Source: a bacterium
GTDB taxonomy: Bacteria; Eisenbacteria; RBG-16-71-46; CAIMUX01
Direction of reading: 5' to 3'
Assembly (NCBI GenBank): GCA_030431975.1
Contig: JAUIHP010000031.1
Coordinates: 1 to 54,570 of the forward strand
DNA length: 54,570 nt
Within the stretch, counting starts at the first letter, position 1, and every line of letters begins with the position of its first letter. A program made the translations under genes and the position numbers. The notes below the pieces were generated by a model, which did no database searches, was not told the DNA's origin, and saw nothing but the letters and a program-made list of their open reading frames with translations. Shown here piece by piece: positions 34,086 to 54,570 of the stretch.

Positions 34086-35153
34086 TTGCCCATTGCCGAC
34101 TCGACTCTGATGACGCACCGAGCGAATTGGCTCCGACACCTGGAGGCCAACCTCGGTCGCTCGCAGCATACGGTGCGTTCCTACGGCCGTGACTTCGACG
34201 CTTTGCTGCAGTTCGCTCACGACGCTCAGGGCGCTCATGACGCTCGGGACGTTCCGGACGTTCAGGACGCTCCAGACGTTCCAGACGCTCCGGACGTTCA
34301 GAATGCCCATCAGCGTTCCATCCGAGTCGCCGACCTCGACGCGCCTACAGTCCGCCGGTTTGTCAGTTCGCTCGGCCGCCGGAATCGGGCGCCGCGGACG
34401 ATCGGGCGGGCCATTTCTTCTCTGCGCAGCTTCTTTACGTTCCTGATCAAGAGAGACGAACTCAAGGACGATCCCACGGCCGGTCTGACCGCGCCGAAGT
34501 ACGGGCGGTCGTTGCCTCGTTTCGTGCCCGAAGATGAGATGACCCGCCTCTTCGATGGAGACTGGCCGGAGGGAAAGGACACCGCCCGTGACCGCGCCAT
34601 CCTCGAACTGCTGTATGGGACCGGAATGAGGCTCAGCGAGCTCGTCGGCATTCAGCGGGAAGACGTCAATCTGCGGCTCTACACGGTGCGGGTGCGGGGC
34701 AAGGGCAACAAGGAGCGCGTCCTTGTCTTCGGCAAGGAGACCCGACTCGCACTGGAACGACATCTCGATGAGTTGCGTCGTCGTCGGGTGCCGTCGGGCG
34801 GGCCCCTGTTTCCCGGTAGGTCTCGTGGGAGCCGGTCCGGCGCGTCCGGCGCGTCCGGTGGTTCCCAGAGGCCCGACGGGCTCCGAAGCATTAGCCCCCG
34901 AACCGTTCAGCGAATCGTCAAACGACACCTCGGCCGGCTGGCCCGTGCCGGTGGTCATCATCCTCATGTCCTTCGTCATTCCTTTGCGACCCATATGCTC
35001 GATCGCGGTGCTGATATCCGGGCGATTCAGGAACTTCTCGGGCACTCGAGTCTCGGTACGACGCAGATCTACACGCATGTGTCCATCGAATCACTACGAC
35101 GAGAGGTGTTGAAGGCGCACCCGCGCGCCGGTCGGTCTAACCAACCCAGTTAA
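34086..35153 (+). CDS. xerC: Tyrosine recombinase XerC/XerD
   Basis: About 355 residues; resolves chromosome dimers at dif. The SAM-like core-binding N-domain (HRANWLRHLEANLGRSQHTV) and the catalytic domain are complete: Arg182 in YGTGMRLSEL, Lys in RGKGNKER, HPHVLRHSFATH (His-x-x-Arg), HSSLGTTQIYTH and the nucleophile Tyr329. Two insertions depart from the family: an Asp/Val/Pro/Ala repeat of about 30 residues in the N-domain (34221-34300) and a Gly/Ser/Ala stretch near 34818-34880. The start is uncertain: TTG 34086 has GAAAGGA 8 nt upstream; GTG 34068 and ATG 34110 are alternatives. The normal protein end is near KAHPRA; the last residues overlap the HNH gene tail to tail. Position before hslVU matches the xerC-hslV-hslU order of other bacteria. 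Confidence 0.93.
   Translation: MPIADSTLMTHRANWLRHLEANLGRSQHTVRSYGRDFDALLQFAHDAQGAHDARDVPDVQDAPDVPDAPDVQNAHQRSIRVADLDAPTVRRFVSSLGRRNRAPRTIGRAISSLRSFFTFLIKRDELKDDPTAGLTAPKYGRSLPRFVPEDEMTRLFDGDWPEGKDTARDRAILELLYGTGMRLSELVGIQREDVNLRLYTVRVRGKGNKERVLVFGKETRLALERHLDELRRRRVPSGGPLFPGRSRGSRSGASGASGGSQRPDGLRSISPRTVQRIVKRHLGRLARAGGHHPHVLRHSFATHMLDRGADIRAIQELLGHSSLGTTQIYTHVSIESLRREVLKAHPRAGRSNQPS
34221..34300 (+). repeat. 9-bp reiteration within xerC
   Basis: Degenerate units around GACGTTCCG/GACGCTCAG encode alternating Asp-Val-Pro and Asp-Ala-Gln in the recombinase N-domain. The unit length keeps the frame. Confidence 0.75.
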
Positions 35154-37301
35154 GGGTGCGGAACTGCTCCACATCGCAGAACTCTGGCCGAAGGACCATC
35201 GCAGTCTTTCCGGGGCCTGGCCAGCGACTGTAATCGTTCCCCTCGTGTGGACTCCTTGCAGATGACAGGCCGCGCAGAGTGTTGTCAGATTCGACGGGTC
35301 GTTCGTTCCTCCGCGAGAGCGGTAGACGATGTGGTGAACGTTGAGTTGAGTCCTCGCGTTGCACCGGGGAGACGCGCACTGGAAGCCGTCGCGGGCGAGG
35401 ATGTCGAACTCCGCCGTCCTACGGCGAAAGTCGCGGTCCTCTGCGGTCCAGCCGTTGAGGACGTGAAGGATCATGACTTCCAGGCACCACCAAACTGGCA
35501 TGTCGTCGCCGTAGGCGGTACGCATCCGGAAAACACTTCGATTCAGAGAGTCCAACAAGTCGCGATCCAAGTGAACCCGAATCATGGTGGTGCACTTCTC
35601 GCGAGGATCGGGGACGCGAAAGATCTCCTTCCATTGGCGCGCAGAAATCTTCCCGAACCGCGCAGAAATCTTCCCGAGCAGATTGTCCGCAACTTCAGCG
35701 CTAGCGGGCCCTCCACCCGCTACAGATGATTTGTGTATCGCGGCGGCTTCATGAAACTCCGGCAGGGAAATGAGTTCTGGAGCGGAGAGGAGCCGGGCTG
35801 CGATTGCAGGCCACGCGGCCAACGGCGGGGGAGCCAGACGCGGGTTGTGGCTCTCCCGTTTGACGTCCTCAAGTGTGAGGTCATCGGCACTCGCATCCTG
35901 CTTCACGGCCGGGAACGAGCCAGCCTCGGGTGGCCGTAGCTCGTCATGCGCCAATGCCCACCGGACCTGGTCTTCCAGTACCGAAGTCGTCACGGTTCGC
36001 GCACGATCCCACCACAGCTGCATGCACGAGTCGTTGGCTCCGGCCCGGTCGATCCGGCTGAGAACGAGCACGGAACTCGTTCGCAGCTCTTGATCAGAAT
36101 CGGCTTCGTGCAAGGTACGCGTACGAGTCTGCCAATCCCGAATCCAAAGGTTGGCGGTCCGGACGGTTACACCCAGTCGGTCTTCCACGTAGTGGCCAAA
36201 CGAGTCAAAGCCCAGCGAACGCCAAGCCTGTGTGGTTCTGACTTCGTAGAGTAACGACGCAAGCTGCGACCGGAGTGTCCGAAGCTTGGCCTCGATGGCC
36301 CGAAACTCTCGGAGGAGTTCGTGGCCGCAATGGCTCGGCGCCGCTTCTCTCGTCGTCAACTCGGATACGGACGCCGAAACAGGGTCTGGCTCTGATGCCG
36401 AAGCCAGAAGTTCATCCAGCACCGAAAGCCGAGACATCCCGCTCGCAACAACGTCCTCGGTTGGAAGCCGCGTCACGACGATGCCGTCCAACGCAACGGG
36501 TTCGTTCATGCCGGCCTTTGCTTCAAGCTTTCGGTACCGGTAGGAACGGTCGGTCCCGCTCGGATTCTCGCGAACCGTGGCGTTGCCCGATGCTTGAAAC
36601 TCGGCAAGGAGGACCTCAAGGGCCCGGGAATGCCCTGCAGGTACTGCCGTTCGGCGCGCCACGTTTTCGCTGAAGGCGTCGAGGATCCAACGAAAGCGGG
36701 CCGGACACTCGAGATCTAAACGCCATGTCCCTTCGGGAACTGCGGAGTCCAAACCGCCGGGGCCCAGGCCGGGGTCGGGCCCGGGGTTGGTGGTGGAATG
36801 GCGACATTGCCTCCGTTCGTTCAAGAGCTGCTTCAGTTGCTTCGAGGTGAGGAGATACGCATTTCTAATCCACTCAGCGTCATTGGTCCCGTCCAACGCT
36901 GGGAGGATCTCCAGAATCCTGGATTCGCAGACAAGACCGGACTCGAGCACCGCGCGCAGCAGGGGATGGGTTGCGATCGCGCGCGAGAGTCGGTCTGCGT
37001 CTTGAAAGGATCGAAGACTGATCCCCAGCTCTTCTTTGGAGAAGACGGACGTCCGCGAGTAGCCGAGGTCTAGCGGGTCGATCTCATCGTGAATTCGTCC
37101 CGCTATTTCGATACGGGACACTCTCATTCTCGCCATCGTTGTGCTTAGACATGCGATCCGCCGGTCGAGACGGTGTCCTCGAATGCGAAACGAGGGCGCA
37201 CCCGCCGGGAGATGCATTGCGGTCGGGGACGGCTGCGGCCGTATCTCAGTCACTTCGTGTTGGGTTGCTAAGGACATCATTGTTCTTGTGATTGCATGCA
37301 T
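35094..37301 (-). CDS. HNH endonuclease domain protein (DUF222-like helical region)
   Basis: 735 residues. The C-terminal HNH nuclease spans about 625-690: RRRTAEFDILARDGFQCASP, then LNVHHIVYRSRGG and NLTTLCAACHLQGVH, with the zinc-type Cys pairs (CASPRC, CAAC) and the catalytic HH. The middle (about 360-430, RSLGFDSFGHYVEDRLGV) resembles the helical part of the 13E12/DUF222-like HNH proteins often found as multicopy genes. The N-terminal 200 residues are not recognised. It lies opposite to its neighbours, overlaps xerC by 60 nt at the 3' end, and its last residues (LVRPTGARVRLQHLSS) are the antisense of xerC. A 21-bp duplication encodes GKISARF-GKISARQ (35638-35679). The start (ATG 37301) is followed by a possible alternative (MMSLATQ). 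Role unknown; selfish-element or defence associations are possible. Confidence 0.85.
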   Translation of the reverse strand: MHAITRTMMSLATQHEVTEIRPQPSPTAMHLPAGAPSFRIRGHRLDRRIACLSTTMARMRVSRIEIAGRIHDEIDPLDLGYSRTSVFSKEELGISLRSFQDADRLSRAIATHPLLRAVLESGLVCESRILEILPALDGTNDAEWIRNAYLLTSKQLKQLLNERRQCRHSTTNPGPDPGLGPGGLDSAVPEGTWRLDLECPARFRWILDAFSENVARRTAVPAGHSRALEVLLAEFQASGNATVRENPSGTDRSYRYRKLEAKAGMNEPVALDGIVVTRLPTEDVVASGMSRLSVLDELLASASEPDPVSASVSELTTREAAPSHCGHELLREFRAIEAKLRTLRSQLASLLYEVRTTQAWRSLGFDSFGHYVEDRLGVTVRTANLWIRDWQTRTRTLHEADSDQELRTSSVLVLSRIDRAGANDSCMQLWWDRARTVTTSVLEDQVRWALAHDELRPPEAGSFPAVKQDASADDLTLEDVKRESHNPRLAPPPLAAWPAIAARLLSAPELISLPEFHEAAAIHKSSVAGGGPASAEVADNLLGKISARFGKISARQWKEIFRVPDPREKCTTMIRVHLDRDLLDSLNRSVFRMRTAYGDDMPVWWCLEVMILHVLNGWTAEDRDFRRRTAEFDILARDGFQCASPRCNARTQLNVHHIVYRSRGGTNDPSNLTTLCAACHLQGVHTRGTITVAGQAPERLRWSFGQSSAMWSSSAPLTGLVRPTGARVRLQHLSS

Positions 37302-37429
37302 TGGTATGGGCCTCGTGTTCTTATGCTTGGACGATGTGATGTCTTGTAAACATATACAATTCGTGTTGTGACTGCAAGATAAATAACGAACAACTGTATG
37401 TGAAATGTGAGGGGATTAACTCAGGCTTG

Positions 37430-37672
37430 AGTGCCTGGCCGGATCAGGTCTTGCAGGGGCTGCCCCGGCACTCGATGCCGCCCAACCGCCCAAACGTCCC
37501 AGTTACCCAACGCCGCCGAACTGGGCATAAGCCCCGGCACCCAATGTCATCGAACTGCCCGGACGACCCCGGCACACAAGCCCGCAGAACTGCGCAGCCC
37601 GTCCAGGCTCAGAAACCATCGAACCGCACCAAGTCGCCCAACTGTCCGCGCCTCAAACACCGTCGAACGGTC
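37430..37672. repeat. Decayed ~34-bp repeat tract
   Basis: The words GAACTG or GAACCG recur about every 34-35 bp (seen at 34, 35 and 34 bp intervals), each followed by C-rich sequence with CCCCGGCAC-like words. Similarity between units is low; it looks like an older, diverged tandem array next to the fresh 19-bp one. Confidence 0.5.
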
Positions 37673-37678
37673 CAGGCT

Positions 37679-38056
37679 CGAACGCCCGACCCAGGCCCGA
37701 ACGCCCGACCCAGGCCCGAACGTCCGACCCGGGCCCGAACGTCCGACCCGGGCCCGACCGCCCGACCCAGGCCCGAACGCCCGACCCAGGCCCGAACGCC
37801 CGACCCAGGCCCGAGCGTCCGACCCGGGCCCGAACGCCCGACCCAGGCCCGAACGCCCGACCGAGGCCCGAACGCTCGACCCAGGTCCGAACGCCCGACC
37901 CAGGCCCGAACGCCCGACCCAGGCCCGAACGCCCGACCCGGGTCCGAACGCCCGACCCAGGTCCGAACGCCCGACCCAGGTCCGAACGCCCGACCCAGGC
38001 CCGAACGCCCGACCCAGGTCCGAACGCCCGACCCAGGTCCGACCGCCTGCCCGGCC
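37679..38056. repeat. 19-bp minisatellite, about 19 copies
   Basis: Tandem units of consensus CGAACGCCCGACCCAGGCC with period exactly 19 from 37679 to 38039, plus a decayed twentieth. Variants: CGTCC for CGCCC, CCGGG for CCAGG, and GGTC for GGCC (6 copies). On the minus strand each unit reads GGG-CCT-GGG-TC-GGG-CGTTC. There are no interspaced unique sequences, so it is not a CRISPR array. Since 19 is not a multiple of 3, it is not a coding repeat. Confidence 0.95.
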
Positions 38057-38264
38057 ACATGGAAAACCAAGCCGCCCCGCTACCATTTCCGGGTATCCTC
38101 ACCGACCGGTTGCGACCACCCGCAGAAAGCACGGCGCGCACCGACTGACCAAACGCCTACGACCTTCACGAATAGTTCGGGTCTGAGATTCACCAGAACC
38201 AGTTCGCGGCCCCGGGTTTAGAAAGCTCGGAGCCTCGACAGTCAACCAAAGGGAGTTGCCAGAG

Positions 38265-38807
38265 TTGGCCATTCACTCAACCACCGTTCTGGGTGTCGTC
38301 CACGACGGACAGGCTGCGCTGGGAGGCGATGGGCAGGTCACCTTCGGCCACACGATTCTCAAGTCGACGGCGAACAAGCTGCGTCGGCTGGCTGGAGGAC
38401 GTGTCCTGGCGGGTTTTGCCGGGTCGGCCGCCGATGGCCTGCGGCTTTTTGAACGCTTCGAGTCCCATCTGGAGAGTCATGAGTCTGATCTCAGGCGGGC
38501 GGCGGTGGAAATGGCCAAAGAGTGGCGGAGCGACCGGGTCCTCCGCCGGCTGGAGGCGCAACTTGCCGTCGTCAACTCCGAGACGGCTCTGCTGCTCAGC
38601 GGCTCAGGGGACATCATCGAACCGGATGACGGTATTCTTGCGATCGGGTCGGGGGCTGCCTATGCCTTGGCGGCGGCCCGCGCGATGCGGGCGACGACGG
38701 AACTGAGTCCTTCCGAAGTCACGAAGAAGTCCCTCGAGATCGCTGCGGAAATCTGTATCTACACCGGTGGGCGGATCGCCGTTCTTGCCGTGGAAGGAGA
38801 CGAGTGA
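38265..38807 (+). CDS. hslV: HslV, proteolytic subunit of HslUV protease
   Basis: 180 residues from the TTG at 38265. Threonine protease: after a short propeptide MAIHS, the catalytic Thr starts TTVLGVVHDGQAALGGDGQV; the family motifs GRVLAGFAGSAADGL and ILAIGSGAAYALAAARA are present. GGGAG lies 9 nt before this TTG; another TTG 9 nt earlier has the Shine-Dalgarno sequence too close. The stop overlaps the GTG start of hslU by 4 nt. HslV forms the double hexamer core that degrades proteins unfolded by HslU. Confidence 0.95.
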   Translation: MAIHSTTVLGVVHDGQAALGGDGQVTFGHTILKSTANKLRRLAGGRVLAGFAGSAADGLRLFERFESHLESHESDLRRAAVEMAKEWRSDRVLRRLEAQLAVVNSETALLLSGSGDIIEPDDGILAIGSGAAYALAAARAMRATTELSPSEVTKKSLEIAAEICIYTGGRIAVLAVEGDE

Positions 38808-53400: not shown

Positions 53401-54570
53401 GGCGAGACGTAGATGCGTCGTGTGAGGTCGAGTCCGGGGCCGACGGCGCGAAGGAAGTAGAACCCAGGTCCGACCACCTCACCCTCTTCGTTGTCCCGAT
53501 ACCACGTCCACTCTTCGCTCGAGAGGACGGGCCCCTCGTAGAGACGTTGCACGCGACGACCCTGCAGGTCGAGAATCTCGATGCGAAGATTGCCGGAAAC
53601 GGATCCGGTCGGCGGCGTGACCCGGAACCGCGCGTGATCGTGAATCGGATGTGGGAACGGCCCGTCCACCTGCCAGCTTTCTGCGACGTTGCCTACAGCG
53701 GTTGCGAGCGGGCTCTCTTGTCCGCCCACGATGACCAAAGTGAGACCGATCCGGCGCACGTCCGAGAGGTCGGAGGCGTCAAAGCTGAATTTGGTGTCGT
53801 TGACCGGCTCATCCGATTCACGCACCCAGGTCGCCTCCGCAGTCTCGCGGTAAATGTGGTGGCCGACGACCCGGACATCCGCGCTCGGCGTCCACTCGAC
53901 GACAACGGCGTCGCCGTTCCAGGTCCACGTCGGCGGGTGCGGTGCTTCCGGAACCGTTTGATCGAACGGATCAAGCCACAGTCCTGCGCCCAGAACGCTT
54001 TGCTGTCCCGCCGAGCTGACCGCGCGGATCTGAGCCGCGAACCCTTGCGTTCGATCGACCGACTGGATGAGTAGGGTCTCCGCCTTCCCGCGCTTTGCCG
54101 GGTCGGGGAGCTCACCATCCCAAGGCGTTGCCTGAGCCCAATCCGATTCCGTTCGAATCGGACTCGTGGCCCAGCGGAACTCGTAGCTCTGGACGCGACC
54201 GACGTTTCCTTCGGTGGCGACTGCCGTCCACGAAAGTTCGATCCAATCCGCGCCCTCTTCAGTTACGCGAAGGTCTGAAACGGAACCGGGTGTTCCGGGA
54301 GCGATATCGTCATCACCGCCGTCGGGATCATCTCCGCCGTCGTCCCCACCGTCGGGGTCATCACCACCGTCATCACCGCCGTCGGGGTCATCACCGCCGT
54401 CGTCTCCACCGTCGGGATCGTCGCCGCCGCCGTCGTCTCCACCGTCGGGATCATCCCCGCCGTCACCTCCGCCGTCGTCCCCACCGTCGGGATCATCACC
54501 ACCGTCGTCTCCACCGTCGGGGTCATCTCCGCCGTCGTCCCCACCGTCGGGGTCATCACCACCGTCGTCT
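53397..54570 (-). CDS. Secreted protein with fibronectin-III-like and FlgD-like sorting domains (N-terminus outside window)
   Basis: The frame is open from the window edge to the stop at 53397, about 390 residues; apparent ORFs in other frames are shadows. Order from the N-terminal side: an Asp/Gly repeat DDGGDDPDGG (about 87 residues), then one or two fibronectin-III-like domains (WIELSWTAVATEGNVGRVQS, VVVEWTPSADVRVVGHHIYR), then a C-terminal FlgD/type-A-like sorting domain (FPHPIHDHARFRVTPP, LRIEILDLQGRRVQRLYEG, VGPGFYFLRAV). This architecture is usual for secreted, surface-displayed proteins of the FCB group. Function of the missing N-terminal part is unknown. I checked the frame by translating across 53820-53885 and 54182-54320. 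Confidence 0.85.
   Translation of the reverse strand, partial: DDGGDDPDGGDDGGDDPDGGDDGGDDPDGGDDGGGDGGDDPDGGDDGGGDDPDGGDDGGDDPDGGDDGGDDPDGGDDGGDDPDGGDDDIAPGTPGSVSDLRVTEEGADWIELSWTAVATEGNVGRVQSYEFRWATSPIRTESDWAQATPWDGELPDPAKRGKAETLLIQSVDRTQGFAAQIRAVSSAGQQSVLGAGLWLDPFDQTVPEAPHPPTWTWNGDAVVVEWTPSADVRVVGHHIYRETAEATWVRESDEPVNDTKFSFDASDLSDVRRIGLTLVIVGGQESPLATAVGNVAESWQVDGPFPHPIHDHARFRVTPPTGSVSGNLRIEILDLQGRRVQRLYEGPVLSSEEWTWYRDNEEGEVVGPGFYFLRAVGPGLDLTRRIYVSP
54310..54570 (-). repeat. 30-bp tandem repeat encoding DDPDGGDDGG
   Basis: Repeats of a 30-bp unit with small 3- to 9-bp length changes continue to the window edge. They encode an acidic Asp/Gly linker. Confidence 0.9.

What the first reader, a model, noticed from the sequence alone, without database searches (positions are those of the whole stretch)
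37679..38056. Frame-free 19-bp minisatellite with strong G-quadruplex potential
About 19 exact-period copies read GGG-CCT-GGG-TC-GGG-CGTTC on the minus strand, giving dozens of G3 runs with 2- to 5-nt loops: a canonical G4 pattern repeated along 360 bp. It is non-coding (19 is not a multiple of 3) and sits just before hslV. It could affect replication or transcription, change copy number, or be a target for the neighbouring HNH nuclease.
Basis: seen in the sequence. Interest (0 to 1): 0.7.

Follow-up and report, generated by a model that had tools for sequence, protein, structure and literature searches.

The report
Private DNA repeat beside multicopy nuclease gene
The 19-base repeat is real and non-coding, but instead of an isolated G-quadruplex oddity it is one of many unrelated short repeats lying just upstream of copies of an expanded, apparently damage-inducible (SOS-type) nuclease gene family in this bacterium; why they gather there is unknown.

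Summary
The array is confirmed: window 37672-38047, 19 full 19-bp units, 8 of them perfect, found nowhere else in the 6.19-Mb genome or in 58 other genomes. It lies between an HNH nuclease gene (minus strand) and hslV, in DNA absent from relatives, where xerC directly precedes hslV. It is non-coding by codon usage, although open frames cross it. The G3 motif for G-quadruplexes is present, but G4Hunter is moderate, hairpins win in folding models, unit variants fall freely in the G-runs, and most sibling arrays lack the motif, so a G4 function is not supported.

The unexpected result is the context. The HNH gene belongs to a lineage-specific family of at least 18 copies, most with a LexA/SOS-type box in the promoter. 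Eleven of 18 copies carry a private, unrelated minisatellite 100-850 bp upstream, against 6 of 68 genes with similarly long upstream gaps (p about 1e-5); three copies examined afterwards all had one. HNH genes also hold nine times more internal coding arrays than other genes.

Best reading: a locally born, probably neutral minisatellite in a repeat-prone nuclease locus. Whether the nuclease causes the repeats is untested.

The parts
37672..38047 (-). 19-bp minisatellite, 19 full units, G-rich strand is minus (the sense strand of the HNH gene)
   Evidence: TRF; unit table; genome-unique
37302..38255 (.). 954-bp intergenic region between the divergent HNH and hslV genes; no DNA homologue elsewhere in the genome apart from a 23-bp motif
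35094..37301 (-). HNH nuclease gene, 735 aa, member of a dispersed family of at least 18 copies; HNH/zinc residues conserved
   Evidence: Pfam PF01844; copies; alignment
37387..37400 (-). LexA/SOS-type box CATACAGTTGTTCG in the HNH promoter (degenerate: 8 of 10 positions of CGAACNNNNGTTCG)
   Evidence: matrix built from 12 other HNH promoters: best site in the window, score reached by 1 position in 1.19 Mb; lexA's own CGAACACGCGTTCG
35154..38255 (.). 3.1 kb absent from relatives, which have xerC directly before hslV: HNH gene plus its 5' flank with the array
38169..38179 (+). 11-bp palindrome CGAATAGTTCG inside a dispersed 23-bp motif, in the presumed hslV promoter region; function unknown
38256..38807 (+). 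hslV (start codon 38256 or 38265)
   Evidence: NCBIfam TIGR03692

Best explanation
The array is a locally born minisatellite in the non-conserved 5' flank of an HNH nuclease gene that was inserted between xerC and hslV. A short GC-rich seed was duplicated in tandem by slippage or unequal recombination, and the array now sits as untranslated spacer between the SOS-type promoter of the HNH gene and the promoter region of hslV. Its sequence is not selected. The HNH loci of this genome are prone to, or tolerant of, tandem duplication both upstream and inside the gene, so most copies carry their own unrelated array. Shown: array, uniqueness, extra DNA relative to relatives, SOS-type box, enrichment. 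Inferred: slippage or recombination as the mechanism, lack of function, and no special role of G4.
For: Unique to this locus in the genome and absent from 58 other genomes. Relatives have xerC directly followed by hslV, with no array. Recent HNH paralogs (87-93% identical DNA) share the gene and about 255-300 bp of promoter, but beyond it have unrelated arrays: 14 bp, 7 bp GCCTCGT, 7 bp GGGTTCG, or none. 11 of 18 HNH copies have an array 100-850 bp upstream, against 28 of 612 random genes and 6 of 68 with upstream gaps of 400 bp or more; 3 of 3 copies fetched after the pattern was seen have one. Internal coding arrays: 9 of 16 HNH genes against 13 of 181 others. Variants are regional (G3A only in the upper half, C6+A14 only in the lower half) as expected of local duplication, and do not avoid the G-runs. 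Coding score negative in the open frames that span it.
Against: Position relative to the promoter is similar in many copies, which neutral birth alone does not explain. Seven of 18 copies have no upstream array. No significant higher-order repeat or degenerate older copy was detected beside the array. TRF thresholds were chosen by eye, and copies of one family are not fully independent. No sister species is held, so birth after insertion is not directly dated.
Confidence: 0.6

Rival explanations
1. The arrays are scars of the nuclease's own action: SOS-induced HNH enzyme nicks or cuts DNA near its gene, and repeated break repair builds locus-specific tandem repeats upstream and inside the gene.
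For: Strong enrichment at HNH genes upstream and within; SOS-type boxes; intact HNH residues; an HNH gene in another family of the order also has a perfect box CGAACATATGTTCG and a 17-bp array directly upstream plus a coding array; a distant HNH gene in the same genome (L163) has a box and a 13-bp array.
Against: No cleavage site or shared unit sequence: unit similarity between sibling arrays is hardly above shuffled units. Non-HNH SOS genes are too few here to serve as a control. Relaxed constraint explains the same enrichment.
Confidence: 0.15
2. G-quadruplex element: the minus strand folds into G4s that alter transcription or replication of HNH or hslV, or drive the instability of the array.
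For: 46 G3 runs, 7 non-overlapping motifs against 1.5 in shuffles, strongest 376-bp G4Hunter bias of 11,760 windows; all 4 G4-capable sibling arrays have the G-rich strand on the HNH-sense side; G4-dependent minisatellite instability is known for CEB1 in yeast lacking Pif1 (PMC2673046).
Against: G4Hunter mean 0.88; folding with a G4 term keeps hairpins for this unit but gives G4 for the L059 and L160 units; variants fall in G-runs 11 of 17 times; 7 of 11 sibling arrays have no G4 motif; the array lies about 250 bp upstream of the HNH promoter, so that promoter would not transcribe it.
Confidence: 0.12
3. HNH elements insert preferentially beside existing minisatellites, so the array predates the nuclease gene.
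For: Arrays lie just outside the block shared by recent paralogs.
Against: Arrays are rare in matched intergenic regions (2 of 50) and have unrelated sequences; relatives have no array and at most a short gap between xerC and hslV; arrays are on the 5' side, with 1 of 10 on the 3' side.
Confidence: 0.06
4. The array encodes a repetitive protein (19-aa repeat in every frame).
For: Long open frames run through the array on both strands.
Against: Codon-usage scores are negative in the five frames tested, whereas hslV, hslU, HNH, xerC and argF are positive; all 39 coding arrays in the random sample have periods divisible by 3; no Pfam match.
Confidence: 0.03

Closest known systems
Bacterial intergenic minisatellites / VNTR loci
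   Same: Head-to-tail units of tens of bases in non-coding DNA, locus-specific, imperfect copies
   Different: Polymorphism not testable here; recurrent placement upstream of one nuclease gene family with unrelated units
13E12 repeat family of Mycobacterium tuberculosis (multicopy HNH proteins in the LexA regulon; PMC4181829)
   Same: Multicopy HNH genes with a CGAAC-N4-GTTCG type SOS box
   Different: No DUF222 match in any of 13 members (that DUF222 defines 13E12 proteins is my own knowledge); no minisatellite association seen in the papers found
CEB1 G-rich minisatellite in yeast (PMC2673046)
   Same: G-rich tandem array with G4-type motifs
   Different: CEB1 G4s shown in vitro and instability shown in vivo; here only motifs, moderate score, hairpin-competent unit
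Free-standing homing endonuclease genes
   Same: HNH gene inserted between genes that adjoin in relatives
   Different: Target site, cleavage and homing untested; many dispersed copies; SOS-type promoter

Membership tests
Bacterial minisatellite | Tandem units of about 10-60 bp, imperfect, head to tail | tested here: met
Bacterial minisatellite | Copy-number polymorphism between strains (VNTR) | not testable with these tools
   no second strain held
G-quadruplex element | Four or more G3 runs with loops of 1-7 | tested here: met
G-quadruplex element | High G4 propensity over competing folds | tested here: inconclusive
   G4Hunter 0.88 mean, 1.32 maximum; hairpin preferred with RNA energies plus G4 term; no DNA G4 energies available
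G-quadruplex element | G-runs kept against mutation | tested here: not met
   11 of 17 variant cells, 4 of 7 distinct variants, in 9 of 19 G-run positions
13E12 (DUF222-HNH) family | DUF222 domain | tested here: not met
   13 members, E up to 1
13E12 (DUF222-HNH) family | HNH domain, multicopy, LexA-type box | tested here: met
Free-standing homing endonuclease | Intergenic insertion with an unoccupied site in relatives | tested here: met
   at family/order distance
Free-standing homing endonuclease | Site-specific cleavage of the unoccupied allele | not testable with these tools
   needs biochemistry
CRISPR array | Repeats separated by unique spacers | tested here: not met
   units are contiguous
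IscB RNA-guided nuclease | Full-length IscB (RuvC plus HNH) | tested here: not met
   only the HNH part matches, 51.8 bits against a cut-off of 175

The most novel reading that the evidence does not exclude
An SOS-induced, multicopy HNH nuclease family acts in cis as a tandem-repeat generator: its activity near its own promoter creates and renews private minisatellites, which diversify the regulatory region and the linkers of each copy.
Probability: 0.12. Interest if true: 0.8.

Novelty: new variant of a known kind. Interest (0 to 1): 0.5.

Why it matters
How minisatellites are born in bacteria is poorly understood. A single genome in which independent, unrelated arrays recur at the same relative place beside copies of one SOS-type nuclease gene offers a natural replicate series, so that 'nuclease causes repeats' against 'repeats are merely tolerated' becomes testable. 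The 19-bp array on its own would be unremarkable.

Tried and rejected
Shared unit sequence among sibling arrays: similarity barely above shuffled units on the sense strand (p 0.02), not on both strands (p 0.12). LexA half-sites (CGAAC/GTTCG) as the reason for the arrays: 3 of 12 HNH units against 9 of 50 background arrays, no clear enrichment. Degenerate older array beside the present one: no significant match in the flanks. Higher-order repeat: only lag 4 reaches p 0.04 among 8 lags. Rfam: nothing in the window. Array in viral contigs: none. Naming the organism: the one genome-contig scan gave a single distant HNH match. Related HNH genes in phage records: one weak match to the HNH motif only. 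HNH as a catalogued defence protein: only weak HNH-motif matches.

Full report
Observation. TRF reports one array at 37672-38047, period 19, 19.8 copies, 92% matches. In register there are 19 full units of GGGCCTGGGTCGGGCGTTC on the minus strand, 8 of them perfect. The unit is found nowhere else in the 6,186,365-bp genome with up to 2 mismatches, not in 58 other genomes with up to 1 mismatch, and a 28-base stretch of it not in viral contigs.

Coding or not. That does not follow: three units form a 57-nt period and open frames of 153-273 codons run through the array on both strands. It is nevertheless most likely non-coding: all five frames tested have negative codon-usage scores, while hslV, hslU, HNH, xerC and argF are positive, and in the random sample all 39 arrays inside genes have periods divisible by 3.

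G-quadruplex. The G strand holds 46 G3 runs and 7 non-overlapping G3N1-7 motifs (shuffles average 1.5), and no 376-bp window among 11,760 in 1.19 Mb is more biased by G4Hunter. But the mean score is only 0.88, and a folding model that allows G4s keeps hairpins for this unit although it switches to G4s for the units of two sibling arrays (RNA energies, so only indicative). Variation among the units does not avoid the G-runs: 11 of 17 variant cells fall in them, for 9 of 19 positions. G4 formation is possible; selection for it is not seen.

Surroundings. The array lies in a 954-bp region between divergent genes: an HNH nuclease (35094-37301, minus; Pfam HNH) and hslV (38256, plus). In relatives of the same family, order and class, xerC directly precedes hslV and hslU and no array is present there. 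The 3.1 kb between xerC and hslV here is thus an addition: HNH gene, its 5' flank and the array.

The HNH family. The protein has many relatives in this genome (48 matching segments; 16 copies with readable N-terminal or long segments, and three more at contig starts), few and distant ones in other members of the class, and several copies are cut by contig ends. The HNH and zinc residues are invariant. Most copies have a box of the type CGNACATTTGTTCG in the promoter, and lexA in this genome has CGAACACGCGTTCG upstream, so these are probably SOS genes. The copy in the window has a degenerate box, CATACAGTTGTTCG, at 37400-37387, the best site of the window and matched by 1 position in 1.19 Mb. 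Multicopy HNH genes with SOS boxes are known as the 13E12 family in Mycobacterium tuberculosis (PMC4181829), but the DUF222 domain of that family is not found here, so this is an analogue and not a member.

The association. Minisatellites with unrelated units occur 100-850 bp upstream of 11 of 18 HNH copies with enough flank: window, L054, L055, L056, L059, L065, L066, L069, L160, L161, L162; the seven without are L052, L053, L058, L060, L062, L064 and L070. The three L160-L162 were fetched after the pattern had been noticed, and all three have one. In the same genome 28 of 612 random genes, and 6 of 68 with upstream gaps of at least 400 bp, have such an array (Fisher p 3e-10 and 9e-6). HNH genes also have nine times more internal coding arrays per base (9 of 16 genes against 13 of 181). 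Close paralogs share gene and promoter, but not the arrays, so the arrays arise or turn over faster than the genes. A distant HNH gene in the same genome (L163) and an HNH gene in another family of the order (L168) also combine an SOS-type box with an array just upstream.

Interpretation. The simplest account is local tandem duplication in an unconstrained, inserted 5' flank, in a gene family that tolerates or provokes repeats. That the SOS-type nuclease itself provokes them is attractive but untested; relaxed constraint predicts much the same. Direct control by the array of HNH or hslV has no evidence.

Limits. Background comes from a 1.19-Mb sample with a home-made gene finder; thresholds were set by eye; copies of one family are not fully independent; copy numbers rest on an assembly; no sister species or transcription data are held; the organism could not be named.

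Noticed in passing
C2, C3, C7, C10, C13, C27, C32, C37 and others (loci L056, L057, L061-L064, L068, L071, L160-L162): Many contig ends of the assembly fall inside copies of the HNH gene family, so near-identical paralogs seem to break the assembly and the copy number is uncertain.
   Followed up: partly
HNH genes, e.g. L070 6454-6800 (36 bp x 9.6), L062 1625-1736 (6 bp x 18.7, in the leader): Internal repeats in the linkers of HNH genes, about nine times the density of other genes.
   Followed up: partly
L089 17170-17321: A 37-bp array upstream of a minus-strand gene carries a LexA-like palindrome CGAACTCCTGTTCG in at least three of its units: possibly a tandem operator array.
   Followed up: no
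window 38162-38180; L060 6005; L081 10568; L051 1503: Dispersed palindrome-containing motif CGAATAGTTCG (CACGAATAGTTCGGG in three of the places); possible regulator site.
   Followed up: no
L082 (G000:C22:180000-199900): A 20-kb stretch with 45% GC in a 62% GC genome, low predicted coding density: possible foreign island.
   Followed up: no
window 54308-54569: The window, which is the whole contig, ends within a 30-bp tandem array, so the assembly broke at a repeat there.
   Followed up: no
L168 5977-6084 and 6125-6138 (genome G005): HNH gene in another family of the order with a perfect SOS-type box CGAACATATGTTCG, a 17-bp array just upstream and an 18-bp coding array after the start codon.
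   Followed up: partly
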